Assembly (NCBI GenBank): GCA_002794775.1
Contig: NBAY01000029.1
Location: 248,001 to 312,000, forward strand
Length of the DNA: 64,000 nt
Source of the DNA: Porodaedalea pini
Lineage: Eukaryota; Basidiomycota; Agaricomycetes; Hymenochaetales; Hymenochaetaceae
Direction of reading: 5' to 3'
In this document: positions 22,789-48,051 of the stretch, piece by piece
Numbering within the stretch: the first letter of the stretch is position 1
Layout: each line of letters starts with the position of its first letter
The notes under the pieces: model-generated
Seen by the model: the letters and a program-made list of their open reading frames with translations, nothing else
What the model was told of the DNA's origin: nothing
The model's database searches: none
Translations under genes and position numbers: made by a program

Positions 22789-24515
22789 TCTTAATATACA
22801 AATGCAGCCCCCTACTTTTACATAGCCACAAGCTGACTAAACTCGGACTTTGAATTGTTTGATGCTTCCTTTTTCCTTCTTCAGTCATCACATCACATGC
22901 TCCTGCTCCGGCCAGCTCTGAAACATTTGATGGCTCAAAGCGGCAACATGCAGATCATCACATGATGTCTGCACATGTGCACACATCCGTGAGCAGACCG
23001 GTCTGTAGCCTCAATCAACCCATTTCCCATATGAAAAAAAATTGTAAAAAATATGAAAAAAAAATCGCAAAAATCAGGGAAAACCATTATAATTAAATCA
23101 TGCTCTTCTCTCAAAAATTTTATGACTAAAAGTGGTAATTCCAAAGCAGCAGCATGCAAATCATCTTCAACCAATTTTATACTCTGAGCTCAAACAACTC
23201 ATTCCTCACATGAAAAAGTTAGGAAAAATGCAGGAAAAAAATAAGTCAGTTAGACAAATATTCTTCTATCTTCTTCATGTGTATTATAAAATAAATCTCA
23301 GTAGAAAATCAACCAATTGGAGTCCATTGAGAATTACTCTCAGAATATGTAAATCATTGGCCTGGCTCATGCTAGAGTATACATAGCACAACTCAGTATA
23401 AGTGCATATAAGCTTTGGATGAGTTGGGTAGTAAAGAGAATGTGAAAAGGGCATGAACTAAACATAATGTGCCAGACTCCAAAGGTCTGGAGGCTGCCAC
23501 TGAGTCTCAGACTTGGACTCCTCATAATTGTGGTACAGCTACATGGTTGTGTTAGACCATAAAAGATAAAGCACACTTGATGCAAGCACATCAATATGTC
23601 CATTTATTTTATGTCACTGCAGAAGGTATTAGTAGCTTTCTTACATGCAGGTACCCATAGTATTATATAGATAGTTGTACTCTGAAAAGCATACTTTTTC
23701 TGATGTTCTTCTTTATAGACCAAATTTTCATCACAATTTACTGAAGTATATTTTTCACAGATACAATTCTTCTCTCCTAATGGTACAGAAGCATAATACA
23801 GGCAGTGCAAAAAGGTCTTGCCCCATATTAAATTTATAGGGCAAGTTGAATCTCTCTTTTAGCCTTATTTTGAAATATATGTTAGAGCTCATTTCATCTC
23901 TTACACTACAGAGCATGGGTTCTCATACAGGATAGATAGTCTCTTCATGGAGGCTTACAAGCCTATAGAGTGTGAAGAAAAGATATGTTCTTCTGAGTGA
24001 GTTACAGACTAAACTTTGGTTCAGAGGAGTGATGCAATACTTTTTTTGCCTACTATATAGCCTTTTATGAATATAATATAAGGTGTCCTAACATAGTATC
24101 TATATTGTATAAAGAATATCCTTTCTATTTTAAATGGAGACATGAGAAGCAGGTATTATGCACTATGTCTCTCCATTGAAGGAGACTTATTCTATCTTCA
24201 AGTTCTCAACAACCAATATTGTACTTAGTGAGGTTTTGTTGTAAATAGAATGCCATACAATTCAGATTGCTTTCAAGCATGTGTATGTGAGATATATAGT
24301 TTTGCAATTGAAGAATCATGTGAACTAGGATGAAGCATTGTTCTAAGAGCTTAGACTGATGGCCAGCAAGGAACTTTGAATAGGTATAGCTTTTAGAGTG
24401 AGAAATTGCATTAATTAAATCTGAAGAAACAAGAAAACTCAGATTAAGTAATGCCTAAAAAACTCGGATTGATGGCCAGCGGAGTTCCCGGTGAAGCCAG
24501 GAACTCCAGGGCTGG
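22789..24515 (+). mobile_element. Helitron-like non-autonomous element, copy 1
   Basis: The 5' end is TCTTAATATACAAA preceded by A (22788). The 3' end is a hairpin (GGAGTTCCCGG, short loop, C-rich partner) at about 24481-24507, then eight bases ending in CTGG at 24512-24515. TC..CTRR with a 3' hairpin fits Helitrons, which insert between A and T. The next base is T, but that T is the first base of copy 2. The copy carries about 500 bases of filler (roughly 23550-24055) absent from the other two. No RepHel protein. Confidence 0.72.
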
Positions 24516-25855
24516 TCTTAATATACAAACGCAAAGGGCCACTTTTGACACAGCCACATGCTGACTAAATTCGGACTTTCAATTGTTTTGATGCTTCTTT
24601 TTTCCTTCTTTAGTTGTCTCACATGCTCCTGCTCTGGCCAGCCCTGAAACTTTTGATGGCTCAAAGCAGCAACATTGCAGATCATCACATGATGTCTGCA
24701 CATGTGCACACATCCATGAACAGACTGCTCTGTAGCCTTAATCAACTCATTACCCATACGAAAAAAAATTGTAAAAAATATGAAAAAAAATCGCAAAAAT
24801 GAAGGAAAATACTTTAATTAAATCATGCTTTTCTCTCAAAATTTTGATGCCTAAAAGTGGTAACTCCAAAGCAGCAGCATGCAAATCATCTACAATCAAT
24901 TTTATACTCTGAGCTCAAACAACTCATTCCTCACATGAAAAAGTTAGGAAAAATGCTGAAAAAAATAAGTCAATTAGAAAAATATTCTGCTATCTTCTCC
25001 ATATGTATTATAAAATAAATTTCAGTAGAAAATCAACCAATTGGAGTCCATTAAGAATTACTCTCAGAATATGTAAATCATTGACCTGGCTCATGCCAGA
25101 CTATACATAGCACAACTCAGTATAAGTGCATATAAGCTTTGGATGAGTTGGGCAGTAAAGAGAATGTGAAAAGGGCATGAACTGAACATAATGTGCCAGA
25201 CCCCATAGGTCTGGAGACTGCCACTGAGTCTCAGACTTAGACTCCTCATAATTGTAGTACAGCTACATGGTTGTGTTTCAGAGTTTGTGTCTTGGAATGT
25301 CAAACACTCAATACATCAGAGTCAAGTCATGATGTATAGGAAGTCAGCAACATGTTAGAAGTAGTGAGAATACTCTAGCAGGCCTACACCTATAACCTTT
25401 TATGAATATAATATAAGGTGTCCTAACATAGTATCTATATTGTATAAAGAATATCCTTTCTATTTTAAATAAAGACATGAGAAGCAGGTATTATGCACTA
25501 TGTTTCTCCATTGAAAGAGACTTACTCTATCTTCAGGTTCTCAACAACCAATATTGTACTTAGTGAGGTTTTGTTGTAAACAGAATGTCATACAATAAAA
25601 ATTTAGATTGCTTTCAAGCATGTGTATGTGAGATATATAAGTTTGCAATTGAAGAATCATGTGAACTAAGATGAAGCATTGTTCTAAGAGCTTAGACTGA
25701 TGGCCAGCAAGGAACTTTGAATAGGTATAGCTTTTAGAGCAAGAAATTGCATTAATTAAATCTGAAGAAACAAAAAAACTCAGATTAAGCAATGCCTAAA
25801 AAACTCGGATTGATGGCCAGCGGAGTTCCCAGCTTCGCCGGGAACTCCAGGGTGG
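24516..25855 (+). mobile_element. Helitron-like non-autonomous element, copy 2, head-to-tail with copy 1
   Basis: Starts at TCTTAATATACAAA immediately after CTGG of copy 1 and runs to a second hairpin (GGAGTTCCC..GGGAACTCC, 25822-25848) followed by AGGGTGG. The end is GTGG rather than CTGG (one base lost) and the next host base is A rather than T, so this 3' end may be slightly degraded. The interior aligns with copies 1 and 3. Direct abutment of two copies is the tandem arrangement expected from rolling-circle transposition. Confidence 0.72.
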
Positions 25856-26705
25856 AGGAAACGAGCAGCAACTGAACTCCAAGAAAGGGCTGATCGACGT
25901 ATTGCTGACACAGTTGTGTGCTTACGTATTTTATCATCTCGACGCGCTTGCTTTTGACTCCGCGATTCTGCCAGCGACTGCCAACGCCAAGGGCTTACCT
26001 ATTTGCGTGCCTGAGACATCAAGAAGGTGATTCTGAAAAATCTAACGCTCAGATATTACATCTCAAAGGAGTATACGGATGACGGATGCGAACTGGCCGC
26101 ACCCACGCTCAGACTCATTCAGGGATGCTGTGGAGAAGCAGACGGGTGAACAGGACAGCATGCTCAGAGCCAATGGAGGGCGGAAAGTCCGCATTCTGTA
26201 GACTTCGATCTCTGAGATTATAGCGATCATAATGCGATGACTTTGTCTACCTCATGCCCGACGACCTTCCATCGCTGTATCAAGACTATTTTTGGTACCT
26301 TATGTTTGGGAAGGTCAATCAATGAGGCTTGTAGCTATATCCATCGTGTCGTGGTCATTTTCAGCAGATTCTTCCAGCTCCAACGGTGTATTGATGACCT
26401 CGCGCTCCATGCATTCGAACGTCGTTCCGGACTGCGACTATACTGTTTGTCTTCAAGCTCGCTTCGTTCTTACGGAATCCCCAGACTACATATCATTCAA
26501 GGTCGCATCTCCTGTCATGCCGAACTACCGAGCACCTTCGACCGGCTTTGTATAATTGAAACTCGAGTCTAGTCCTAATGAAAAAGCAAATATCATGCGT
26601 TACGTGAAGTGAGAATGACAGGACGCCCAGTTCACTGCTTGCCAGCGCTTATCTCCCTCTGTCTGCCCCTCCCATCTACACCGCGTCACTGACAGTGGCT
26701 GAGCG
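25856..26705. other. Gene-free spacer
   Basis: Between the Helitron-like pair and the next gene. Short open frames only; no motif recognised. Confidence 0.4.
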
Positions 26706-28056
26706 ATGTCGACTGTCTCGTCATCCACGAGTTCTGCTGTGTTCGCTGTGCTTTTGGGACTACTATGCAGTGGTGGATTATCGGCAGCGCAAATATCTAG
26801 CAATGCGACATGTGTTCCTGGTCTCGATGTCGTGAGTACTTTCCTTGTTTAAGTACTTTATCTCAAGTGCTGATAATGGGCGTCGTACATATGGAGTTTA
26901 ACAATTCAAGGGGTCAGACACCGTGCTTAGTCGGCGCGTACTTGGGAGGAGCGTGCAATAACGGGCGTGAGTAGTTTCCTTGGATTACGCAAGTGCAGAC
27001 AATGCCATCCACTCATTTGCAAGCTCGGTAATTGTTTAGAATATAGCGTGAAAGGCCTATCAGTCGGGAGACACTACATCGGCCCTGATGCATCACATGC
27101 CACGCCCTGTCTGTGCAGTACGGTCATGTACGCTGTGATGAACGTGTGCGGCGCTTGCCAGAAGGCATCAGAAGTTGTCTCGTTCGTGGCTTAGTTTTGG
27201 ACCGTCTTATGAAGTATGTACACTCAACTGCTCCCCAAATTTCAGATGGAGCGCTTGGAGTGCATCATGTTCTGTGGTTTACGTTATGGAGTACGTTCTG
27301 GTATTGCTATATACTATTCACTTTGTTTGACATTGATTTCGTCCAGATTTCCCGCAGATATACCTATTGACACAGCGGTTCCTGCATGGGCGTATGAGAA
27401 CAACACAGTAACAAATTTCGACCCATAAGCCACACTCAATGGTCACGGCATGTCTTCCTTTGTTCATATACCAAAGCTTAGCTAATATGTTGTCGTCGTA
27501 GGACCCGAGTCGTCAGCGATGTTTCTCCCGCCCACGACCTCGTTCCGCGCTTCTCCGACTTCGACGGAGAGTTCTCAGGAGGATACGGCCAGGCCAAGCA
27601 GTGCTGGACGAATTGCAGGGGAAGTCATTGCCGGCCTTGCCGGCCTGGCTCTTATCTGTGGTGCCTTGGTGTTCTTTCTAAGATGCCGAAGAAGATCGTA
27701 TGCGCATGTCAAGGTGATAGTCGACGAAGACGATTCCGCGCCTCACCCTTTCATCTTCCCTTCCCGCGAATCTCCAGACCTTGCCAGTGTAAGGCATTCA
27801 ACCTCAACATACTCGTCAACAATGGTGACGATCAATACAGAGTTGCTAAGGGCCACTGTATGCCTGATTTCCTCATCTATTCCGTATTATCTTACCTTTC
27901 CTTGGCTATTCTACAGGATGGCCCAGCGACATTCATCATTGCTCCTCAGCTTGATGTGACCGAGACTGGATCAGACAATGCTCGAATTCCTCAGCGTCCC
28001 GGCGCTTTACCACTAAGCAAGGCTGAACGCGGGTCGTATCGCTGGTCGCCTGAGGT
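26706..28056 (+). pseudogene. Secreted/TM protein gene of a common agaricomycete type, interrupted in its last codons
   Basis: Exon 1 (26706-26831) encodes a signal peptide (AVFAVLLGLLCSGGLSAAQ). The next exon reads FNNSRGQTPCLVGAYLGGAC, then YSVKGLSVGRHYIGPDASHA, PCLCSTVMYAVMNVCGACQ, then IPIDTAVPAWAYENNTVTNF. A Ser/Thr-rich stalk, a TM helix (GLAGLALICGALVFFL), an RCRRRS stop-transfer and a cytoplasmic tail ending SPEV follow. The ectodomain with paired Cys plus stalk and TM is a frequent agaricomycete architecture of unknown role. One frame change near 27183 and a donor reading ATAAGC instead of GTAAGC near 27426 suggest decay. The 12.9-kb element sits inside the codons for Pro-Glu-Val; the original stop TGA is at 40932-40934 beyond it. 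Confidence 0.68.
28049..28056. repeat. 8-base target-site duplication, left copy (CCTGAGGT)
   Basis: CCTGAGGT at 28049-28056 directly precedes the element end CACTTCAGG. The identical octamer follows the other end at 40923-40930. Confidence 0.88.
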
Positions 28057-28126
28057 CACTTCAGGCTACCCCTCTGAGCAGACCAAGTAGGTCTATTCGT
28101 ACACACAACTAATTGACCATTTAGGT

Positions 28127-28345
28127 ATTGAGCCTGGGCGTGCCCAATCCGCTGGGCACTCCCAGTGGGTGCGGGTTGGGTGTGCCCAATTTTTTTTACT
28201 GTGGGAAAGTTGGGTGCACCCAGATCATTTGGGCACTCCCAACTGGGCCTGCCCAGTTTTTGGGCACACCCAGTGGGAGTGCCCTGGGAGTGCCCAGATA
28301 TGTCACTGTCACTGACTGTCTGGGGGACTTTTGGGCACACCCAAT
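28127..28345. repeat. Subterminal TGGGC/GCCCA-rich block (left arm)
   Basis: Dense alternation of TGGGCAC, GTGCCCA, TGGGAGTGCCC and TGGGCACACCCA, forming many short self-complementary pairs near the element end. Mirrored at about 40634-40852. Confidence 0.65.
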
Positions 28346-29235
28346 TTGTTTTTGCCATAAAATCTAGGGGCTTTATAAATGTTGTATTTTATTGTTTTTG
28401 ATCCTACAATTTAGTGATCTTGCTATTGACCATTGGCATGAATTGAATTTTGGTCAAGATTAGTCTGCATCAGACAGGAAAGAATGCTGAGCATGCTAGA
28501 CACACAGGACAAAAAGATATTTGTTGCTATTAGAAAGACTAAGATAATAAAAATAATAGAGATAGTATTGAACAGTTCTATATACTGTAAGACAAATGGA
28601 GAAATAGGGAAATTGTACAGCAGTATGAGAGAAATGAAAATAAATATGAGTCAGCTAAAAGTGTAATGACTACTTAAGAAATCATTAATGATATTCTAAC
28701 ATTAAACATTGGGAATCAAGCTCCAGCATTCTAACTATATTAGAGAGATTATATGTCATAGGCTCTATGAGAAGTTCTAACTAGAGTGACATAGCTGCAC
28801 TGGACACTTAAGTAGAGCAATTGAAAACTGAACAAGTGCAAAGGTCTGATACATTAGGATTAGTTTGAATGCCCAAGTAGAATAGAGAGTATAAACTAAG
28901 AGGGAAACTGAGATAGAAATGTAGAAAGAGTGTAAGCCCACTAGAGCATTCTTATCATTTCTAACATGTTGCTGACCTTCTGAACATCATAACATAACTT
29001 TGAGATACTAAGCATCTAACACTCTGAGATACACAAAGTATCAATACAGTGTAAAATCCTAGGATGAAGAGAACAAGAAAGGGAAGAGATTTGAAGTTAA
29101 AATGAAAGAGAGACTTGAAAGCAGTCAGACTTGAGCTGTGCTCAAATATCAGGCCTGGACTACTAAGCTTAAAAGATTAGATATGACTAGTTGACTGTAT
29201 CTAAATCTTTTACAGGTACCTAGTTGAGTATACTC

Positions 29236-29795
29236 AGTATACCCAACTATTTGGGAGTGCCCAATTATCTGGGGGTGCCCAATTGGGCACACCCAACTAT
29301 CTGGGGGTGCCCAGTTGGGAGTGCCCAATTATCTGGGGGTGCCCAGTTGGGCACACCCAACTATCTGGGGGGGCCCAGTTGGGAGTGCCCAACTATCTGG
29401 GGGTGCCCAGTTGGGAGTGCCCAATTATCTGGGGGTGCCCAATTGGGCACACCCAACTATCTGGGGGGGCCCAGTTGGGTGCGCCCAACTATCTGGGGGT
29501 GCCCAGTTGGGAGTGCCCAACTATCTGGGGGTGCCCAATTGGGCACACCCAACTATCTTGGGGGGCCCAGTTGGGTGCGCCCAACTATCTGGGGGTGCCC
29601 AGTTGGGCGTGCCCAACTATCTGGGAGTGCCCAGTTGGGCACACCCAATTATCTGGGGGTGCCCAACTGGGTGCACCCAACTATCTGGGGGTGCCCAACT
29701 GGGTGCACCCAATTATCTAGGGGTGCCCAGTTAGGTACATCCAATTATCTGGAGGTGTCCAGTTAGGTACACCCAAATGTCTGAGAGTACCTAGC
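29236..29795. repeat. Minisatellite with self-complementary unit (left arm)
   Basis: About 17 units of 31-32 bases, each of the form CTGGGGGTGCCC then AATTGGGCACACCCAACTAT with small variations. The core GTGCCCAATTGGGCAC is a perfect palindrome. The array stays open in three plus-strand frames because the unit length is close to a multiple of three, but I regard these frames as non-coding. Confidence 0.85.
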
Positions 29796-31057
29796 TATAT
29801 AAGGTCTTTTTTGATTCCTGCCTTAGAATCATTTTTTAAAATGCAAAAAATCATTATGTCATGAAAATTAAATAAGTCTAGAATGGAAGCCTTAATAATT
29901 CTATAGATAATTTCTCAAGCATTTTGTTCTAGACTCTGCATCTTGGCAGCTTTGCTCTGAAGACAAATCAATACACTACAATCATTGACCCGACACCAGA
30001 GCTTCCACAAGATTAAGGACAAGAAAGCATAAAACTTCATTTTGAAGAGATTACCACCCTGCTCCTCAATAGTGCTCTGTATCTTCTCAATTGCATGCTC
30101 AAGACACTCAATTGCTGCATACCGCAAACTCAAAATAAGTATAGAGTGAGACAATTACAACAAACACAGCGCACATTGTCAGTAGCATTTGTACCCAGCA
30201 CATAGAGAGGCAGTGAAATGAGCTTTGCCTTGATAGGTACCACCTCAGTGCTCACCACCTCACCTGTCTGATAATATCAATGCCCATGTCCATATAGCAC
30301 ATTAACTCAATGTCTGCATGCAGCTTGATTGGCTACAGTAGTTGGCCACCACATGATCATCACCATCAGCTGTGCGAATGTTGCCAGTAACAGCAAGTTC
30401 AACAGCATTGTGAAGACCTTCTCCAGCTCCATCAGTATGAGCTTGAATGCATCATACAGATGGCCATATGTCTTGCCTAGCAGCCACCATCACTATTTCC
30501 TTCTTGTCCTCACCTGTTGCCTCCAGTTTTGCAGGTGTGGTGCTGGACTGGCCCTCAGAGATCTCCTCTGACAAAAGTTTGGATGCAACATGTCATAATA
30601 TGGATGCAACCATCTTCTCTTCACATTTTGTAATGTCCTCCAGTGATACACAACACTTACTCAGATCAAAGTATCCTTCAAGGATAACAAATGAATGACT
30701 GAGACTGATACAACAGATACAACAAGAGACAGACCCTTCCCCTTGTCCACATGTAGGATGACAATGATCTCTTTCCTTCCAACACAGATCAGCCTTTGAA
30801 TTGAACAAGTTCACCTGCAAGAAAGCTCTGAGAGTAGAATCATCCCCTTGATGTTGTCACATTCAACCTGTATATATCATGAATGACAGTCAGTATTAAG
30901 TCACATCGGCCTCTGACCCGACACTCAAGCCCAAGTTGGACAAATAGTTCAAATCTGTACTCCATGCGGGACTCCACACACCATTAGTACTGTTATTGAA
31001 GTTATAGCTATAATGATAGCTACATGACACCACACACAGTATCTCAAGCATTGGTTC

Positions 31058-31790
31058 ACCAAGTGAGAGTGGCAAGTACAAAAAGCACACTGTCAGCTCT
31101 TCAAGTGGGACAGGCATCGGGTCAGACGACAATGGTGTCTGACGGAAAGCGGAAAAAGCAATGTTCGTTGTGCACTGAGTGCCGCGTGCTGGTGAGCTGC
31201 AATGATCGTGAGAGGGCGGCACACTCCGCACGGCTGCGCCATCTGGCAGCGTAGCAGCACACCTGAGCTCTGTTCGCGAACCCTGCCTTTGTCTGCGTAC
31301 GGCCAAATTCCGGACTATTTGCATCGGACAAGGGTGGACTCGGGAAGTGCATCGCGTCGCGTGCTGCAGATTGTTGGCAGTGAACCAAATGCGATTGTTG
31401 ATTCACCAAGTGAGAGCGGCGAGTACGACAGGCAGAATGTCAGTTTTTTGAGCGGAACGGGCATCGGTCAGACAACAATGGTGTCTGTGATGCAAGCGCG
31501 GAAGAAAGGAATGTTTGCTGTGCACTGAGCGCCGCAATGACCGCGAGAGGTGGACCAACAAACGAGAACGGCAACGATCCTGGGGATCAATAGTGGGGCA
31601 GCACGCTCCGCACGGCCGCATCACCTGGCAGCGTCGCAGCATGTCTGAGGTACTCCGTTTGCCATCCCTGCCTTTGTCTGCGCGCGGCCAGACTTCAGAC
31701 TTGCGCCTGCATCTGGCAAGGGTGGACTCGGGAAGTGCCCCGCGTTTGTGCACTGCAGAAACCGGAGACGATCCAAATGCATTCGTACCC
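31058..31790 (-). repeat. Two diverged tandem copies of a ~360-base segment (left arm)
   Basis: Both copies carry TTCACCAAGTGAGAG, CAATGGTGTCTG, TGTGCACTGAG, CCTGCCTTTGTCTGCG and AGGGTGGACTCGGGAAGTGC in the same order. They lie just 3' of the cyclin coding fragment and may be its duplicated C-terminal or downstream region. Mirrored at about 37190-37922. Confidence 0.65.
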
Positions 31791-31844
31791 TCGCTTTTCG
31801 TGCGTTGCATGTTGCGTGACTTCTCTTCCTGCGGCAGCGTAGTG

Positions 31845-33220
31845 CTCTTGCCGACCCAGAGACACCACCCTAGGGCATCGCCCAATGCGCGTTAGCAGCG
31901 TTCAACCACGCGTGATGGGACCGGAGAGCTTTGCCCATGCTCGATTCAAATAGCATCGATCCTGTAAGAATCTTGATACCACAACGAGTGCGGCGACGAA
32001 AGTGCGCCGCGGGCGAAGAAGCGGCGATGACAGAGGTGACAGCGGCGTGAACGGTTTTCCAAGGATCTTACGACGCTTGTCGTTAGACTGCCCTTGAGTC
32101 TGCATCTGCTGAGTTAATGGAAGCGAAGTGTCCATATGGTAGACTGTCGGCACGCGCGATGTGTCGGAGGGGTCCATTGACGTCAGCTCTGTCGGAAGAC
32201 CGCAGGGGTTGGACGTGTCCGAAGAGGTATTTGCCTTTGACGAGAGAGACGCCTCGCCTTCCCTCTTATCCAACTCCGGCTCGCCCCGAGCTCCCGTGCT
32301 GATCTTCTCCTTCTCCGCGAGCCCCGTCACCTTCCCCCGCACCACCCCGATGTAGCAGAGCGCCGACTGCAGGACGCTACGTCTCGTGCGTGAACGGCGA
32401 GGCGAGTGCGATGCAGTGCGTATGCGACGAAGTGCGCAAGCGTATTCGGTATCACTGGTGCCCCTCCTGATCCTGCCGTTGCGGTAGCGGGGGAACGCGA
32501 GACGACTGCGGTCGAGGACGATGTGGAAGAGGTGGAGGACGACGGAGGAAGGATCTCGGGGCAGTCGAAGGTATGGCTGACGAAGCGCGCGCAGAGCTTG
32601 CTGATGTCTTCGTGCCCGTAGTAAGTGTCGACTGCCGGTGGGGGTGCTGCCGGCGCGGGGTGGTGCGAGTGGTGTGCGCGCGGGACTGCCGATGACTGTT
32701 TTTTTGTCGAGCGTTTTCGGCGCGGTCGGAGGGAAAAAAAAGTGATAGAGAAAAAGACACCGATCAACAGCCGCTCATCACTCAAGTATCAGAGATCGGG
32801 GGGAAAGAGGGGGGATGCTTACAGAACTCGAGGTAGACGCTGCGGCAGCGGCGGACGCAGAAGACGATTTCGCAGGTGGAGGCGGGGCGTACGTCGCGCG
32901 GTGCACGCGCCGGAAGGGCGAGTGGTTCGAGCTGGCACTCGACGGTGATATCGAATGCGGATGCGGATGGGGGTGGGGATGGCGCGGGGCGTGGACGGTG
33001 GCCATATTCGCTGCAGCGGGCTCTCTGGCTCTGGACGTTGACGAGCGTCTGTGAGCGTCGAAGGACAGGTGGAGTTGATGCGTGAGAAGAGGTCGCTGCG
33101 AATGTTTTGATCGGAACGAGATCCTTCTCGGACACAACGGTTGCGTCGCGTTCGCCGGACCGCTCAATGAGAAGGGCGGATGGGAAAACGGCTGACGTCG
33201 ATGTTGAAGCGTGTGGATCG
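31845..33220 (-). pseudogene. Captured Pcl/Pho80-type cyclin fragment (left arm)
   Basis: Mirror of the copy at 35760-37135; see that entry for the motifs. The same frame breaks are present, so the damage predates formation of the arms or has been homogenised between them. Confidence 0.75.
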
Positions 33221-33279
33221 TCAAGGGGGGCAGGAGGAAGAGGCGAGGAACACGTGCTGCGTGAACAGGGCGAGGGAAG

Positions 33280-33510
33280 TTGAACCACACCAGTGCGGCA
33301 GAGACGGAGGGAAGAGTGACCAGCAGAAAGGAGCACCCTGCTTCATCGGGAAGCCCTGCTTGTCGTTTCCGCCAGAGACGCGGAAGACGTAGCCCTTGAA
33401 CTCATCACCGAGCAAGTCGCTGGGGACACCTGGGACATCTTCTTGCCGTGGAAAATGCGGTAACGACGCTCATCGTCGATGTTGATCGTCTTTTGCTGGC
33501 CCATCGCCAG
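33280..33510 (-). pseudogene. RPS6: Captured ribosomal protein eS6 fragment (left arm)
   Basis: Mirror of the copy at 35470-35700. Confidence 0.8.
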
Positions 33511-34337
33511 GTCAGCGATGTCGACACTTCATGGCCGGTGGTGTCTTGAGGAGCTCGTCGTGTTCTGTCCCTTCAGGCAAGCAAAAAAAATGATGAAAAG
33601 TAATTATTAGTATATTCAAATAGTTTTTATGATTATTTTTTTTGCTTACCTTGAGTGTGTGGCTGGTGGGACAGCCGTGCTCGTCGTCGATGGTGAAGAC
33701 GAAACGACACGAACAACGACGACGCGTTGGTTGTGTTGCCTGATTTGGCTGATCGCCGCGTCTCAAACAAGCAATCAAAGCATTCCGATTCTTTCGGAAA
33801 TCTCAAAAGTCTCAGCTGTTGGCCTCAGACAAATTCTACGGACGCGTTTAAAAATACAAAAAAATATGGAATAGTTTTATTATGTATGTATCTATAGCAT
33901 AGCTAAGAATTACGCATCCAACGCGTTTTTTTATGGAGTCATAAATACAACAGTAATCTTGACATGCAGCACCAGGCCTCCAGAAGCATACACAAAAGTA
34001 CAATATACCCTGAAAGGCCTGACACATATTCTATCATGAATTAAGTGATACATTGTGTATGTATGCAAGGTTTCAAGCCAATCAGACAAGAACTGACTTC
34101 ATGATAGAGAAGGAGGTGGTTTCATGAGATCTTCTGAATCTGAGTGTTTTGTATATCCTGTTCCCAGTTTTTACTTTGAGGGCATATAAAATATTGAGCA
34201 TATTTAGGGATATCGTTTTTATGTCTCTGTAAATTTACAGGTATCCAGCCTCAGTGGTTGGAGCTGGGGGAATTGCAAAACATCGAAAATCTTGGGTTTA
34301 AGAGGTTCAGAGAAAGCATATATTCATGTTGTTGCTT

Positions 34338-34642
34338 TATTCCAAACTTCAGGAAGCTCTATAAAATAGATATTAGTACTTTATATGACTACAATAAATG
34401 TAATCAGGTGCTAGATCTCGGAGTTAGAGGAAAGTTCTGAAGGGGGAGAGGAAATACATGCAAAACTGCTCTGTGTTTCTTGGATTTGCGTCGAGTTTCA
34501 CAAAACATGAACTGCATCACCTCTCATTTCACTCCCCATTCCCAACTTTTCCCTCACCCACAAAACTAAGGGTTGGATATCTTTCTTGGACCATACTTAA
34601 ATACAAATAACTAAATTTGTTGAGCTTCTCATACTTTGAACC
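34338..34642. other. 305-base central spacer of the giant inverted repeat
   Basis: The only unpaired part of the element. No ORF of note, no recognisable transposase. A hairpin transcript through the element would have this as its loop. Confidence 0.7.
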
Positions 34643-35469
34643 AAGCAACAACATGAATATATGCTTTCTCTGAACCTCTTAAACCCAAGATTTTCGATGT
34701 TTTGCAATTCCCCCAGCTCCAACCACTGAGGCTGGATACCTGTAAATTTACAGAGACATAAAAACGATATCCCTAAATATGCTCAATATTTTATATGCCC
34801 TCAAAGTAAAAACTGGGAACAGGATATACAAAACACTCAGATTCAGAAGATCTCATGAAACCACCTCCTTCTCTATCATGAAGTCAGTTCTTGTCTGATT
34901 GGCTTGAAACCTTGCATACATACACAATGTATCACTTAATTCATGATAGAATATGTGTCAGGCCTTTCAGGGTATATTGTACTTTTGTGTATGCTTCTGG
35001 AGGCCTGGTGCTGCATGTCAAGATTACTGTTGTATTTATGACTCCATAAAAAAACGCGTTGGATGCGTAATTCTTAGCTATGCTATAGATACATACATAA
35101 TAAAACTATTCCATATTTTTTTGTATTTTTAAACGCGTCCGTAGAATTTGTCTGAGGCCAACAGCTGAGACTTTTGAGATTTCCGAAAGAATCGGAATGC
35201 TTTGATTGCTTGTTTGAGACGCGGCGATCAGCCAAATCAGGCAACACAACCAACGCGTCGTCGTTGTTCGTGTCGTTTCGTCTTCACCATCGACGACGAG
35301 CACGGCTGTCCCACCAGCCACACACTCAAGGTAAGCAAAAAAAATAATCATAAAAACTATTTGAATATACTAATAATTACTTTTCATCATTTTTTTTGCT
35401 TGCCTGAAGGGACAGAACACGACGAGCTCCTCAAGACACCACCGGCCATGAAGTGTCGACATCGCTGAC

Positions 35470-35700
35470 CTGGCGATGGGCCAGCAAAAGACGATCAACA
35501 TCGACGATGAGCGTCGTTACCGCATTTTCCACGGCAAGAAGATGTCCCAGGTGTCCCCAGCGACTTGCTCGGTGATGAGTTCAAGGGCTACGTCTTCCGC
35601 GTCTCTGGCGGAAACGACAAGCAGGGCTTCCCGATGAAGCAGGGTGCTCCTTTCTGCTGGTCACTCTTCCCTCCGTCTCTGCCGCACTGGTGTGGTTCAA
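35470..35700 (+). pseudogene. RPS6: Captured ribosomal protein eS6 fragment (right arm)
   Basis: Reads [20 protein letters not shown] then KKMSQ. After a short frame change it reads [20 protein letters not shown] and FPMKQG, the conserved N-terminal half of eS6, the small-subunit protein phosphorylated by S6 kinase. The following PHRVRLLL block is missing, then [16 protein letters not shown] resembles the next eS6 segment before similarity ends. The N-terminal MKLN block and the basic C-terminal half are absent. Clearly a truncated, frameshifted copy; the functional gene must be elsewhere. Confidence 0.85.
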
Positions 35701-35759
35701 CTTCCCTCGCCCTGTTCACGCAGCACGTGTTCCTCGCCTCTTCCTCCTGCCCCCCTTGA

Positions 35760-37135
35760 CGATCCACACGCTTCAACATCGACGTCAGCCGTTTTCCCAT
35801 CCGCCCTTCTCATTGAGCGGTCCGGCGAACGCGACGCAACCGTTGTGTCCGAGAAGGATCTCGTTCCGATCAAAACATTCGCAGCGACCTCTTCTCACGC
35901 ATCAACTCCACCTGTCCTTCGACGCTCACAGACGCTCGTCAACGTCCAGAGCCAGAGAGCCCGCTGCAGCGAATATGGCCACCGTCCACGCCCCGCGCCA
36001 TCCCCACCCCCATCCGCATCCGCATTCGATATCACCGTCGAGTGCCAGCTCGAACCACTCGCCCTTCCGGCGCGTGCACCGCGCGACGTACGCCCCGCCT
36101 CCACCTGCGAAATCGTCTTCTGCGTCCGCCGCTGCCGCAGCGTCTACCTCGAGTTCTGTAAGCATCCCCCCTCTTTCCCCCCGATCTCTGATACTTGAGT
36201 GATGAGCGGCTGTTGATCGGTGTCTTTTTCTCTATCACTTTTTTTTCCCTCCGACCGCGCCGAAAACGCTCGACAAAAAAACAGTCATCGGCAGTCCCGC
36301 GCGCACACCACTCGCACCACCCCGCGCCGGCAGCACCCCCACCGGCAGTCGACACTTACTACGGGCACGAAGACATCAGCAAGCTCTGCGCGCGCTTCGT
36401 CAGCCATACCTTCGACTGCCCCGAGATCCTTCCTCCGTCGTCCTCCACCTCTTCCACATCGTCCTCGACCGCAGTCGTCTCGCGTTCCCCCGCTACCGCA
36501 ACGGCAGGATCAGGAGGGGCACCAGTGATACCGAATACGCTTGCGCACTTCGTCGCATACGCACTGCATCGCACTCGCCTCGCCGTTCACGCACGAGACG
36601 TAGCGTCCTGCAGTCGGCGCTCTGCTACATCGGGGTGGTGCGGGGGAAGGTGACGGGGCTCGCGGAGAAGGAGAAGATCAGCACGGGAGCTCGGGGCGAG
36701 CCGGAGTTGGATAAGAGGGAAGGCGAGGCGTCTCTCTCGTCAAAGGCAAATACCTCTTCGGACACGTCCAACCCCTGCGGTCTTCCGACAGAGCTGACGT
36801 CAATGGACCCCTCCGACACATCGCGCGTGCCGACAGTCTACCATATGGACACTTCGCTTCCATTAACTCAGCAGATGCAGACTCAAGGGCAGTCTAACGA
36901 CAAGCGTCGTAAGATCCTTGGAAAACCGTTCACGCCGCTGTCACCTCTGTCATCGCCGCTTCTTCGCCCGCGGCGCACTTTCGTCGCCGCACTCGTTGTG
37001 GTATCAAGATTCTTACAGGATCGATGCTATTTGAATCGAGCATGGGCAAAGCTCTCCGGTCCCATCACGCGTGGTTGAACGCTGCTAACGCGCATTGGGC
37101 GATGCCCTAGGGTGGTGTCTCTGGGTCGGCAAGAG
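35760..37135 (+). pseudogene. Captured Pcl/Pho80-type cyclin fragment (right arm)
   Basis: Ser/Pro/Ala-rich N-terminal coding (about 35760-36150) is followed by an apparent GTAAGC intron and the cyclin box: TYYGHEDISKLCARFVSHTF, LAHFVAYALHRTRLAVH, then in a shifted frame VLQSALCYIGVVRGKV, an acidic linker, RRTFVAALVVVSRFLQDRCY, LNRAWAKLSG and ALGDALGWCLWVGKS. This is the fungal Pho80/Pcl-like (cyclin N) pattern that partners a Pho85-type kinase. A one-base shift near 36600 and a stop (TAA where Glu is expected in the C-E-R-A-L-G motif, near 37087) break it. The sequence remains GC- and CpG-rich, unlike the AT-rich parts of the arm, pointing to a more recent capture. Confidence 0.8.
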
Positions 37136-37189
37136 CACTACGCTGCCGCAGGAAGAGAAGTCACGCAACATGCAACGCACGAAAAGCGA

Positions 37190-37922
37190 GGGTACGAATG
37201 CATTTGGATCGTCTCCGGTTTCTGCAGTGCACAAACGCGGGGCACTTCCCGAGTCCACCCTTGCCAGATGCAGGCGCAAGTCTGAAGTCTGGCCGCGCGC
37301 AGACAAAGGCAGGGATGGCAAACGGAGTACCTCAGACATGCTGCGACGCTGCCAGGTGATGCGGCCGTGCGGAGCGTGCTGCCCCACTATTGATCCCCAG
37401 GATCGTTGCCGTTCTCGTTTGTTGGTCCACCTCTCGCGGTCATTGCGGCGCTCAGTGCACAGCAAACATTCCTTTCTTCCGCGCTTGCATCACAGACACC
37501 ATTGTTGTCTGACCGATGCCCGTTCCGCTCAAAAAACTGACATTCTGCCTGTCGTACTCGCCGCTCTCACTTGGTGAATCAACAATCGCATTTGGTTCAC
37601 TGCCAACAATCTGCAGCACGCGACGCGATGCACTTCCCGAGTCCACCCTTGTCCGATGCAAATAGTCCGGAATTTGGCCGTACGCAGACAAAGGCAGGGT
37701 TCGCGAACAGAGCTCAGGTGTGCTGCTACGCTGCCAGATGGCGCAGCCGTGCGGAGTGTGCCGCCCTCTCACGATCATTGCAGCTCACCAGCACGCGGCA
37801 CTCAGTGCACAACGAACATTGCTTTTTCCGCTTTCCGTCAGACACCATTGTCGTCTGACCCGATGCCTGTCCCACTTGAAGAGCTGACAGTGTGCTTTTT
37901 GTACTTGCCACTCTCACTTGGT
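37190..37922 (+). repeat. Two diverged tandem copies of a ~360-base segment (right arm)
   Basis: Mirror of 31058-31790. Confidence 0.65.
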
Positions 37923-39185
37923 GAACCAATGCTTGAGATACTGTGTGTGGTGTCATGTAGCTATCATTATAGCTATAACTTCAATAACAGTACTAATGGT
38001 GTGTGGAGTCCCGCATGGAGTACAGATTTGAACTATTTGTCCAACTTGGGCTTGAGTGTCGGGTCAGAGGCCGATGTGACTTAATACTGACTGTCATTCA
38101 TGATATATACAGGTTGAATGTGACAACATCAAGGGGATGATTCTACTCTCAGAGCTTTCTTGCAGGTGAACTTGTTCAATTCAAAGGCTGATCTGTGTTG
38201 GAAGGAAAGAGATCATTGTCATCCTACATGTGGACAAGGGGAAGGGTCTGTCTCTTGTTGTATCTGTTGTATCAGTCTCAGTCATTCATTTGTTATCCTT
38301 GAAGGATACTTTGATCTGAGTAAGTGTTGTGTATCACTGGAGGACATTACAAAATGTGAAGAGAAGATGGTTGCATCCATATTATGACATGTTGCATCCA
38401 AACTTTTGTCAGAGGAGATCTCTGAGGGCCAGTCCAGCACCACACCTGCAAAACTGGAGGCAACAGGTGAGGACAAGAAGGAAATAGTGATGGTGGCTGC
38501 TAGGCAAGACATATGGCCATCTGTATGATGCATTCAAGCTCATACTGATGGAGCTGGAGAAGGTCTTCACAATGCTGTTGAACTTGCTGTTACTGGCAAC
38601 ATTCGCACAGCTGATGGTGATGATCATGTGGTGGCCAACTACTGTAGCCAATCAAGCTGCATGCAGACATTGAGTTAATGTGCTATATGGACATGGGCAT
38701 TGATATTATCAGACAGGTGAGGTGGTGAGCACTGAGGTGGTACCTATCAAGGCAAAGCTCATTTCACTGCCTCTCTATGTGCTGGGTACAAATGCTACTG
38801 ACAATGTGCGCTGTGTTTGTTGTAATTGTCTCACTCTATACTTATTTTGAGTTTGCGGTATGCAGCAATTGAGTGTCTTGAGCATGCAATTGAGAAGATA
38901 CAGAGCACTATTGAGGAGCAGGGTGGTAATCTCTTCAAAATGAAGTTTTATGCTTTCTTGTCCTTAATCTTGTGGAAGCTCTGGTGTCGGGTCAATGATT
39001 GTAGTGTATTGATTTGTCTTCAGAGCAAAGCTGCCAAGATGCAGAGTCTAGAACAAAATGCTTGAGAAATTATCTATAGAATTATTAAGGCTTCCATTCT
39101 AGACTTATTTAATTTTCATGACATAATGATTTTTTGCATTTTAAAAAATGATTCTAAGGCAGGAATCAAAAAAGACCTTATATAG

Positions 39186-39744
39186 CTAGGTACTCTCAGA
39201 CATTTGGGTGTACCTAACTGGACACCTCCAGATAATTGGATGTACCTAACTGGGCACCCCTAGATAATTGGGTGCACCCAGTTGGGCACCCCCAGATAGT
39301 TGGGTGCACCCAGTTGGGCACCCCCAGATAATTGGGTGTGCCCAACTGGGCACTCCCAGATAGTTGGGCACGCCCAACTGGGCACCCCCAGATAGTTGGG
39401 CGCACCCAACTGGGCCCCCCAAGATAGTTGGGTGTGCCCAATTGGGCACCCCCAGATAGTTGGGCACTCCCAACTGGGCACCCCCAGATAGTTGGGCGCA
39501 CCCAACTGGGCCCCCCCAGATAGTTGGGTGTGCCCAATTGGGCACCCCCAGATAATTGGGCACTCCCAACTGGGCACCCCCAGATAGTTGGGCACTCCCA
39601 ACTGGGCCCCCCAGATAGTTGGGTGTGCCCAACTGGGCACCCCCAGATAATTGGGCACTCCCAACTGGGCACCCCCAGATAGTTGGGTGTGCCCAATTGG
39701 GCACCCCCAGATAATTGGGCACTCCCAAATAGTTGGGTATACTG
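39186..39744. repeat. Minisatellite with self-complementary unit (right arm)
   Basis: Mirror of 29236-29795 with one fewer G in a homopolymer near 39607, the only indel I noticed between the arms. Confidence 0.85.
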
Positions 39745-40633
39745 AGTATACTCAACTAGGTACCTGTAAAAGATTTAGATACAGTCAACTAGTCATATCT
39801 AATCTTTTAAGCTTAGTAGTCCAGGCCTGATATTTGAGCACAGCTCAAGTCTGACTGCTTTCAAGTCTCTCTTTCATTTTAACTTCAAATCTCTTCCCTT
39901 TCTTGTTCTCTTCATCCTAGGATTTTACACTGTATTGATACTTTGTGTATCTCAGAGTGTTAGATGCTTAGTATCTCAAAGTTATGTTATGATGTTCAGA
40001 AGGTCAGCAACATGTTAGAAATGATAAGAATGCTCTAGTGGGCTTACACTCTTTCTACATTTCTATCTCAGTTTCCCTCTTAGTTTATACTCTCTATTCT
40101 ACTTGGGCATTCAAACTAATCCTAATGTATCAGACCTTTGCACTTGTTCAGTTTTCAATTGCTCTACTTAAGTGTCCAGTGCAGCTATGTCACTCTAGTT
40201 AGAACTTCTCATAGAGCCTATGACATATAATCTCTCTAATATAGTTAGAATGCTGGAGCTTGATTCCCAATGTTTAATGTTAGAATATCATTAATGATTT
40301 CTTAAGTAGTCATTACACTTTTAGCTGACTCATATTTATTTTCATTTCTCTCATACTGCTGTACAATTTCCCTATTTCTCCATTTGTCTTACAGTATATA
40401 GAACTGTTCAATACTATCTCTATTATTTTTATTATCTTAGTCTTTCTAATAGCAACAAATATCTTTTTGTCCTGTGTGTCTAGCATGCTCAGCATTCTTT
40501 CCTGTCTGATGCAGACTAATCTTGACCAAAATTCAATTCATGCCAATGGTCAATAGCAAGATCACTAAATTGTAGGATCAAAAACAATAAAATACAACAT
40601 TTATAAAGCCCCTAGATTTTATGGCAAAAACAA

Positions 40634-40852
40634 ATTGGGTGTGCCCAAAAGTCCCCCAGACAGTCAGTGACAGTGACATATCTGGGCACTCCCAGGGCAC
40701 TCCCACTGGGTGTGCCCAAAAACTGGGCAGGCCCAGTTGGGAGTGCCCAAATGATCTGGGTGCACCCAACTTTCCCACAGTAAAACAAATTGGGCACACC
40801 CAACCCGCACCCACTGGGAGTGCCCAGCGGATTGGGCACGCCCAGGCTCAAT
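40634..40852. repeat. Subterminal TGGGC/GCCCA-rich block (right arm)
   Basis: Mirror of 28127-28345, differing by one base (a T-run in the left arm is broken by G here). Confidence 0.65.
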
Positions 40853-40922
40853 ACCTAAATGGTCAATTAGTTGTGTGTACGAATAGACCTACTTGGTCTG
40901 CTCAGAGGGGTAGCCTGAAGTG

Positions 40923-40930
40923 CCTGAGGT
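40923..40930. repeat. 8-base target-site duplication, right copy (CCTGAGGT)
   Basis: Identical to 28049-28056. Continuing from this copy the frame of the interrupted gene reads Pro-Glu-Val then TGA at 40932-40934, the presumed original end of that gene. Confidence 0.88.
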
Positions 40931-46734: not shown

Positions 46735-48051
46735 CCAGCCCTGGAGTTCCCGGCGAAGCCGGGAACTCCGCTGGCCATCAATCCGAGTTTTTTAAGCATT
46801 GCTTAATCTGAGTTTTTTTGATTCTTTAGATTTAATTAATGCAACTTCTTGCTCTAAAAGCTATACCTATTCAAAGTTCCTTTCTGGCCATCAGTCTAAG
46901 CTCTTAGAACAATGCTTCATCTTAGTTCACATGATTCTTCAATTGCAAAACTATATATCTCACATACACATGCTTGAAAGCAATCTGAATTGTATGGCAT
47001 TCTATTTACAACAAAACCTCACTAAGTACAATATTGGTTGTTGAGAACTTAAAGATAGAATAAGTCTCCTTCAATAGAGAGACATAGTGCATAATACCTA
47101 CTTCTCATGTCTTCATTTAAAATAGAAAGGGTATTCTTTATACAATATAGATACTATGTTAGGACACCTTATATTATATTCATAAAAGGCTATAGGTATA
47201 GGCCTGCTAGAGTATTCTCACTACTTCTAACATGTTGCTGACTTCCTATATATCATGACTTGACTCTGATGTATTAAGTGTCTGACATTCCAAGACACAA
47301 ACTCTGAAACACAACTATACAGCTGTACCACAATTATGAGGAGTCCAAGTCTAAGACTCAGTGGCAGCCTCCAGACCTTTGCAGTCTGACACATTATGTT
47401 CAGTTCATGCCCTTTTCACATTCTCTATACTGCCCAACTCATCCAAAGCTTATATGCACTTATACTGAGTTGTGCTATGTATAGTCTGGCATGAGCCAGG
47501 TCAATGATTTACATATTCTGAGAGTAATTCTCAATGGACTCCAATTGGTTGATTTTCTACTGAAATTTATTTTATAATACATATGGAGAAGATAGCAGAA
47601 TATTTTTCTAATTGACTTATTTTTTTCAGTATTTTTCCTAACTTTTTCATATGATCTCAGAGTATAAAATTGATTGTAGATGATTTGCATGTTGCTGCTT
47701 TGGAGTTACCACTTTTAGCCATCAAATTTTTGAGAGAAGAGCATGATTTGATTAAATTATTTTTCCACTAATTTTTGCGATTTTTTTTTCATATTTTTTA
47801 CAATTTTTTTCATATGGGAAATGGGCTGATTGAGGCTACAGACCAGTCTGCTCACGGATGTGTGCACATGTGCAGACATCATGTGATGATCTGCATGTTG
47901 CCGCTTTGAGCCATCAATAATTTCGGAGCTGACCAGAGCATGTGATGCAATGACTGAAGAAGGAAAAAAGGAAGCATCAATAAAATTCAAAGTCTGAATT
48001 TAGTCAGCTTGTGGCTATGTAAAAGTAGGGGGTTGCATTTGTATATTAAGA
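46735..48051 (-). mobile_element. Helitron-like non-autonomous element, copy 3
   Basis: Minus-strand copy of the family at 22789-25855. The 5' end TCTTAATATACAAA begins at 48051 and is preceded by A. The 3' hairpin (GGAGTTCCCGG, loop CTTCG, CCGGGAACTCC) ends shortly before CTGG at 46738-46735, followed by T. Both termini therefore fit the A/T insertion preference exactly. It matches copy 2 in gene order and lacks the ~500-base filler of copy 1. Confidence 0.78.

What the first reader, a model, noticed from the sequence alone, without database searches (positions are those of the whole stretch)
28049..40930. 12.9-kb transposon made almost entirely of two 6.28-kb inverted arms, with a perfect 8-base target duplication
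Arms 28057-34337 and 34643-40922 are reverse complements with only two differences noticed, leaving a 305-base spacer. CCTGAGGT flanks the whole structure on both sides. Deleting the element plus one octamer rebuilds a sensible gene end (Pro-Glu-Val-stop). A mis-assembled fold-back would not create a matching octamer and a restored reading frame, so this appears to be one inserted unit. Terminal repeats of 6 kb in one mobile unit are exceptional; the near-identity implies a recent origin or ongoing gene conversion. No transposase was recognised, so it would be mobilised in trans.
Basis: partly seen in the sequence, partly recalled or inferred. Interest (0 to 1): 0.95.

Follow-up and report, generated by a model that had tools for sequence, protein, structure and literature searches.

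The report
Giant palindromic fungal transposon family
The 12.9-kb stretch is a real jumping element made of two near-identical 6.3-kb mirror-image halves, one of roughly fifty related copies in this fungal genome, and the two halves of a copy appear to keep overwriting each other, so that they stay alike while the copies drift apart.

Summary
Confirmed, and larger than reported. Arms of 6,281 and 6,280 bp differ by one substitution and one 1-base indel around a 305-bp spacer, inside a CCTGAGGT duplication. The same genome (53.3 Mb; Hymenochaetaceae-like by one gene) has 63 matches to the 20-bp terminus (<=2 mismatches; control 0) and 50 inverted pairs of the arms' ribosomal-protein-S6 fragment. 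Of 24 two-ended copies read, 19 have exact 7-8-bp duplications, 1 has 6 bp, 2 have 7 bp with a mismatch and 2 have none. Two longer elements with these ends carry a KDZ transposase; one was read and has 4.0-kb arms. The window copy is best read as a non-autonomous KDZ-superfamily transposon moved in trans. In 11 of 11 fully read copies the two arms are each other's closest relatives; 185 private substitutions lie in both arms and 10 in one. One copy shows 86 private CpG transitions, yet its arms differ at 1 of 6,122 aligned sites. Arms are therefore templated on each other, most likely by gene conversion. Drosophila Galileo is the nearest precedent. New variant of a known kind.

The parts
28049..28056 (.). 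target-site duplication, left copy (CCTGAGGT)
28057..34337 (+). left arm (6,281 bp)
28057..28406 (+). terminal part shared (about 87%) with the right end of the KDZ-coding element C28; ends CACTTCAGGCTACCCCTCTG
29260..29783 (+). array of 16.4 copies of a 32-bp unit in the left arm
33329..33427 (-). fragment of a ribosomal protein S6 gene (PF01092 positions 35-67)
   Evidence: G000:C29:281329-281427
34338..34642 (.). 305-bp single-copy spacer, conserved in at least 40 places of the genome
34643..40922 (-). right arm (6,280 bp), reverse complement of the left arm
35553..35651 (+). mirror copy of the ribosomal protein S6 fragment
   Evidence: G000:C29:283553-283651
39197..39719 (-). mirror copy of the 32-bp array
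40573..40922 (-). right terminal part shared with the KDZ-coding element C28
40923..40930 (.). target-site duplication, right copy (CCTGAGGT)

Best explanation
The stretch is one copy of a family of non-autonomous, almost wholly palindromic DNA transposons of the KDZ (Kyakuja-Dileera-Zisupton) superfamily. Shown: it is a discrete unit with fixed ends, 6-8-bp target duplications and many copies at unrelated sites; two longer elements with the same ends carry a KDZ transposase gene, and the one that was read has 4.0-kb arms. Inferred: the KDZ transposase acts on the shared ends in trans by cut and paste. Shown: the two arms of a copy are templated on each other, because changes private to a copy, including a nested element, array length and CpG decay, are present in both arms. 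Inferred: the copying is gene conversion between arms in place (sister or intra-molecular, perhaps helped by hairpin or cruciform breaks near the 305-bp spacer or by excision gaps). Inferred: the palindrome arose once, by lengthening of already long terminal repeats inward over a captured ribosomal protein S6 fragment, since spacer and fragment are shared by both subfamilies.
For: Unit and family: terminus 63 matches, 50 exact, control 0; duplications in 22 of 24 two-ended copies. KDZ partner: C28:3533-25584, 22,052 bp, duplication ACTTGTAT, arms 4,022/3,960 bp, PF18758 at 2.4e-60; C2:501266-530822 with PF18758, duplication TTGCTATC, transposase piece 87% identical to C28. Arm templating: arms pair with their own partner in 11 of 11 copies; private substitutions 185 in both arms, 10 in one; without copy C20, 56 against 9. 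No site shows a fixed difference between the two sides of the spacer, while 333 sites vary between copies yet match between arms in every one of 9 orientable copies with data. Array length runs from about 147 to 730 bp between copies but agrees within 5 bp between arms in 9 of 11. C20: 129 private changes in both arms, 86 of them CpG transitions, arms 1 substitution in 6,122 plus a 15-bp length difference at the spacer edge, other copies at most 88% identical in a 901-bp segment; a palindromic insert with TA ends sits at the same base in both arms. C144: 40 of 43 arm differences lie in the outer 3,020 bp and none in the next 3.27 kb (0 of 5,000 shuffles give such a run), as a conversion tract would leave.
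Against: Movement by the KDZ protein was not shown; shared ends are the only link, and beyond about 350-410 bp plus 32-bp-type repeats the arms of C28 and of the palindromic copies do not match in the 10 kb compared. The window copy codes for no KDZ. Two of 24 copies have no duplication (C25, C14b). In-place conversion is not separated cleanly from re-copying at each transposition; the mutated duplications of C20 and C46 favour in-place but may have been imperfect from the start. In C3 private changes are 4 in both arms and 4 in one. Only 11 copies were read in full; pair scores for the others rest on short segments: equal in 10 of 14 pairs, 14 of 19 and 48 of 50 (a very short fragment whose score classes are shared by many copies). 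Read-level support for the assembly was not available.
Confidence: 0.8

Rival explanations
1. The palindrome is rebuilt from one arm at every transposition (for example by fold-back or template-switching synthesis after excision, or through a hairpin intermediate), so arm identity measures time since the last jump and there is no conversion in place.
For: Explains arm identity in young copies such as C25 (0 differences in 6,660 bp) and the sharing of inserts and decay by both arms.
Against: C20 and C46 have a substituted 7-bp duplication while their arms differ at 1 of 6,122 and 3 of 6,485 positions, the 3 of C46 lying at the spacer edge. The identical half of C144 beside a diverged half looks like a partial tract. 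CpG decay of C20 is private to it among the 40 scored matches, so it probably happened where it sits.
Confidence: 0.17
2. Assembly artefact: a fold-back, or arms falsely made equal by read mis-assignment or polishing.
For: Near-identical arms of 6 kb are hard to assemble, and the method behind this assembly is unknown to me.
Against: Unique flanks with their own target duplications at 22 of 24 copies; spacer fixed at the midpoint in 39 of 39 testable copies; a retrotransposon in only one arm of C19 and real arm differences in C144 and C3 are kept apart in the assembly.
Confidence: 0.02
3. Palindromes formed independently many times from a one-armed element.
For: Each copy's arms are most alike to each other.
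Against: The same 305-bp spacer sits at the same junction in two subfamilies (93-100% identical in 8 of the 11 read copies, about 91% over 291 bp in C20; none in C25 and C3).
Confidence: 0.03
4. The ends belong to another superfamily with 8-bp duplications (hAT, P) and the KDZ gene in C28 and C2 is a passenger.
For: hAT and P elements also make 8-bp duplications (recalled), and fungal elements can carry passenger genes.
Against: Two elements with these ends both carry a KDZ gene, 87% identical over 182 residues. 7- and 8-bp duplications and CA...TG ends are reported for KDZ members (PMC12730594, passages; PMC12810828, passages). The other ORFs of the fetched part of C28 gave no transposase match, but the C28 centre was only partly read and no hAT or P model was searched genome-wide.
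Confidence: 0.06

Closest known systems
Galileo (P superfamily) in Drosophila, foldback-like elements with long terminal repeats (PMC4168063 and PMC3573991, passages seen)
   Same: Long terminal repeats with internal tandem repeats, copies made of little but the two repeats, inserts found in both repeats, 98-100% identity between repeats of a copy, and a suggestion by those authors that long repeats attract recombination and conversion. The longest D. willistoni copy is 9,021 bp with repeats of 4,246 and 4,680 bp.
   Different: Different transposase superfamily and kingdom. Here nearly all of the unit is arm in the whole family, arms are 6.1-6.7 kb with one shared spacer, host-gene fragments lie in both arms, and arm templating is counted directly (185 against 10 private changes).
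KDZ transposons of basidiomycetes (PMC12730594; KDZ1-3 of Cryptococcus in PMC12810828; passages seen)
   Same: KDZ transposase in partner elements, 7- or 8-bp target duplications, 5'-CA..TG-3' ends.
   Different: KDZ1-3 are described with terminal repeats of 241, 139 and 169 bp and Kyakuja-1/-2 of Laccaria with none; here the repeats are 4.0 kb in the KDZ-coding copy read and 6.1-6.7 kb in the derivatives.
Pack-type elements that carry host-gene fragments (Pack-MULE and relatives; recalled, PMC8277862 seen only as a listing)
   Same: Fragments of a host gene (RPS6; in one subfamily a phosphopantetheinyl transferase domain) lie inside a non-autonomous element.
   Different: The fragment is present twice, in mirror image, once in each arm.
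Arm-homogenised palindromes such as those of mammalian Y chromosomes (recalled)
   Same: Inverted arms with a short spacer kept alike by arm-to-arm gene conversion.
   Different: Here the palindrome is itself a mobile unit with target duplications and many copies.

Membership tests
KDZ transposon superfamily | codes for a KDZ transposase (PF18758) | tested here: not met
   None of 77 genome matches lies in the window element, which is why it is called non-autonomous.
KDZ transposon superfamily | ends shared with an element that codes for a KDZ transposase | tested here: met
   C28 (20 of 20 terminal bases) and C2 (18 of 20) flank PF18758 genes; about 350 bp of the end is 87% identical to C28.
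KDZ transposon superfamily | 7- or 8-bp target duplications | tested here: met
   Of 24: 9 with 8 bp, 10 with 7 bp, 1 with 6 bp, 2 with 7 bp and a mismatch, 2 none. Mis-paired flanks: 1 of 156, and that one is the C50 left flank entered under a second label.
KDZ transposon superfamily | CA...TG ends | tested here: met
   CACTTC...GAAGTG.
KDZ transposon superfamily | moved by a KDZ transposase | not testable with these tools
   Needs an excision assay.
Galileo / foldback | long terminal repeats with internal tandem repeats | tested here: met
   6.28-kb arms with 16.4 copies of a 32-bp unit.
Galileo / foldback | P-superfamily transposase | not tested
   The fetched partner gene matches KDZ only; no P model was searched in the genome.
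Pack-type transposon | carries a fragment of an identifiable host gene | tested here: met
   RPS6 fragments in 50 inverted pairs against one full-length match at C81:91618-91995.
MITE | short unit (well under 1 kb; recalled) | tested here: not met
   12,866 bp.

The most novel reading that the evidence does not exclude
The palindrome is a self-maintaining design: each arm is the repair template of the other, so a copy stays internally uniform as it decays or gains inserts, and transposition itself may rebuild the whole unit from a single arm through a hairpin or fold-back intermediate. In this reading captured host-gene pieces are fixed in mirror image by the same process and make the unit a ready source of hairpin RNA.
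Probability: 0.18. Interest if true: 0.85.

Novelty: new variant of a known kind. Interest (0 to 1): 0.66.

Why it matters
A mobile palindrome in many dispersed copies turns arm-to-arm homogenisation, usually studied at a few fixed palindromes, into a replicated natural experiment: insert markers, array lengths and CpG decay all report whether and how far one arm overwrote the other. It also extends the KDZ superfamily to kilobase-scale terminal repeats, shows host-gene pieces held in mirror image, and warns that such units are hard for assemblers and can act as hairpin-RNA sources or recombination hot spots.

Tried and rejected
Assembly fold-back: rejected (target duplications and family). 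Independent palindrome formation: unlikely because of the shared spacer. The idea that the retrotransposon in the left arm of C19 blocks conversion beyond it: rejected, since the outer 1,190 bp are identical on both sides and the apparent 35 mismatches are out-of-register repeats. A first impression of a cyclin fragment in the arm (window 32330-32788) has no Pfam support (0 families) and is dropped. Selection on the phosphopantetheinyl-transferase fragment: pN/pS of C20 against five others is 0.40-0.47, but with the heavy transition bias this decides nothing. The 305-bp spacer has no match in the fetched parts of C28. C25 and C3 lack the spacer: C25 has a relative of the C20 insert in its centre, C3 a 4-kb centre with Ulp1-like peptidase pieces. 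In the RPS6 count I left out 6 of the 113 rows: the full-length gene and 5 rows in other frames that overlap counted ones; 7 of the 107 counted fragments were unpaired; pairing meant a minus fragment followed by a plus fragment within 15 kb on one contig, and most of these pairs were not read in full. Lists were capped at 40 scored candidates (of 138, 52, 106 and 210), and at 150 of 193. Of the 24 two-ended copies in the duplication survey, 10 plus the window copy were read in full, C28 in part (16.0 of 22.1 kb plus flank), the other 12 only as 50-base ends. One extra C50 end (C50:97100) was tried as a partner and gave no duplication; it is not counted.
Full report
Observation. The arms 28057-34337 and 34643-40922 align with one substitution (28193) and one 1-base indel (29367); the spacer is 305 bp; CCTGAGGT flanks the unit. 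The empty site reads ...WSPEV-stop and the occupied one ...WSPEVTSGYPSEQTK-stop. Each arm carries 16.4 copies of a 32-bp unit.

Family. The window lies at G000:C29:248001-312000 of a 53,267,584-base genome in 201 contigs. One window gene (an aspartic protease, PF00026) has its best named hit in Sanghuangporus sanghuang (75% over 73% of the query) and further hits in Phellopilus, Coniferiporia and Phellinidium, so a Hymenochaetaceae-like fungus is likely; this rests on one gene. The 20-base terminus has 63 matches with up to 2 mismatches (50 exact, 7 with one, 6 with two) and the control 0. The spacer has at least 40 matches (capped). RPS6 fragments form 50 inverted pairs plus 7 unpaired pieces, beside one full-length match at C81. 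At about 13 kb each, 50 copies would be roughly 0.65 Mb, or 1.2% of the genome (my estimate).

Target duplications. Of 24 copies with two ends read: 8 bp in 9 (window, C120, C144, C3, C28, C66, C69, C70, C2), 7 bp in 10 (C35, C19, C121, C14, C29b, C42, C45, C50, C56, C57), 6 bp in 1 (C40), 7 bp with one mismatch in 2 (C46, C20), none in 2 (C25, C14b).

Transposase. PF18758 has 77 matches in the genome. Two lie inside elements with these ends: C28:3533-25584 and C2:501266-530822. C28 has arms of 4,022 and 3,960 bp (5 mismatches, 64 gap bases), its KDZ frame outside the arms, and an internal arm segment of 1,701 bp identical on both sides while its relatives C7 and C85 are 98% identical. C2 has inverted segments near both ends and a transposase piece 87% identical to that of C28; the next best in the genome is 71% over a shorter piece and 59% over nearly the whole length. 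C28 shares about 370-440 bp of its end with the palindromic copies at 83-87%, depending on the copy, and 32-bp-type repeats, but no further arm sequence in the part compared. So the partner link rests on the ends.

Arm anatomy across copies. Eleven copies were read in full (window plus ten). Two subfamilies differ by blocks inside the arms: 2,204 bp against 1,322 bp between two shared segments, the shorter block holding a 296-aa open frame with a 4'-phosphopantetheinyl transferase domain (PF01648, 1.2e-10; from a fatty-acid synthase gene as I recall that family). In one search this domain occurs 18 times: two places outside known copies (C9, C13, not examined further), seven inverted pairs (C20, C46, C3, C144, C25, C119, C121; equal scores in all but C144) and two single pieces. 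Whatever the block, it is in both arms.

Arm templating. On five shared segments (about 3.3 kb) the arms of a copy differ at 0-9 sites while the nearest other copy differs at 5-192; a tree pairs the arms in 11 of 11; private substitutions are 185 in both arms and 10 in one, or 56 and 9 without C20. Over whole arms, 92 substitutions in 69,582 aligned positions (sum; three in each of C121, C46 and C144 are at the spacer edge). No site shows a fixed difference between the two sides of the spacer; 333 sites vary between copies but agree between arms in all the orientable copies with data. Array length agrees within 5 bp between arms in 9 of 11 although copies range from about 147 to 730 bp; the exceptions are C19 (651/441, after leaving out its nested retrotransposon) and C144 (230/262). 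C20 is the clearest: 129 private changes in both arms, 111 of them C>T or G>A and 86 at CpG, the reference having 140 CpG in 3,289 bp; both arms score 1626 bits in a 901-bp search where the next copies reach 88% identity; an insert of about 0.86 kb, itself palindromic, between TA repeats sits at the same base in both arms and is absent at that place from the other ten. Two arms could not decay to the same pattern independently.

Mechanism. What is shown is templating. What is inferred is its route. In-place gene conversion is favoured by the partial tract in C144 (40 of 43 differences in the outer 3,020 bp, then 3.27 kb identical, 0 of 5,000 shuffles) and by the substituted duplications of C20 and C46. 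The run test also rejects uniformity for C19 (differences lie in the repeat array) and C3 (0.007) but not for C120 (0.11) or C35 (0.48). Re-copying at each jump is the main rival. Lengthening of terminal repeats by recruiting inner sequence was described for Galileo (PMC4168063 and PMC3573991, passages) and is my preferred origin.

Known and new. Passages seen give KDZ1-3 of Cryptococcus terminal repeats of 241, 139 and 169 bp (PMC12810828) and Kyakuja of Laccaria none (PMC12730594). Galileo reaches 4.2-4.7 kb in one copy (PMC4168063) and its authors proposed conversion between repeats (PMC3573991). My nine searches listed no paper on KDZ elements with kilobase arms, but listings and passages are all I saw and the library lacks most subscription journals.

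Noticed in passing
L035:1889-8135 (G000:C19, left arm of that copy): A Ty3/gypsy-type retrotransposon (RVT_1, integrase, chromo domains) with end repeats differing at 1 of 414 positions and a 5-base CGTGC duplication lies in one arm only.
   Followed up: yes
L045-L046 (G000:C20): Heavy C>T / G>A change at CpG in both arms of one copy, as methylation or a RIP-like process would give.
   Followed up: partly
G000:C20 arms and G000:C25 centre (L043): A palindromic insert of about 0.86 kb between TA repeats, in both arms of C20, and a relative about 90% identical in the centre of C25. Its Tc1/mariner nature is recalled from the TA duplication only.
   Followed up: partly
L047:9369-9929 (G000:C3 centre): Two pieces of an Ulp1-like peptidase (PF02902, one just below and one just above the cut-off) in a 4-kb centre that replaces the usual spacer.
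   Followed up: no
G000:C144, C121, C46, C25, C20, C3 arms: The 296-aa phosphopantetheinyl-transferase frame is open in these copies, also in the decayed C20; pN/pS 0.40-0.47 against the others. Selection is neither shown nor excluded.
   Followed up: partly
G000:C51, C74, C90, C105: Right-hand ends with CCCCTAAG (2 mismatches) appear without a left-hand partner at the same stringency.
   Followed up: no
window 16008-17207: Frame with a Tle1-like phospholipase catalytic domain match (PF09994, 2e-21).
   Followed up: no
window 23001-26000 and 47001-48000: Low-GC stretches (0.345-0.382 in 1-kb bins) in a window mostly at 0.41-0.52.
   Followed up: no
window 34338-34642: The spacer as single-stranded DNA folds better than its 100 shuffles (z -2.79).
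   Followed up: no
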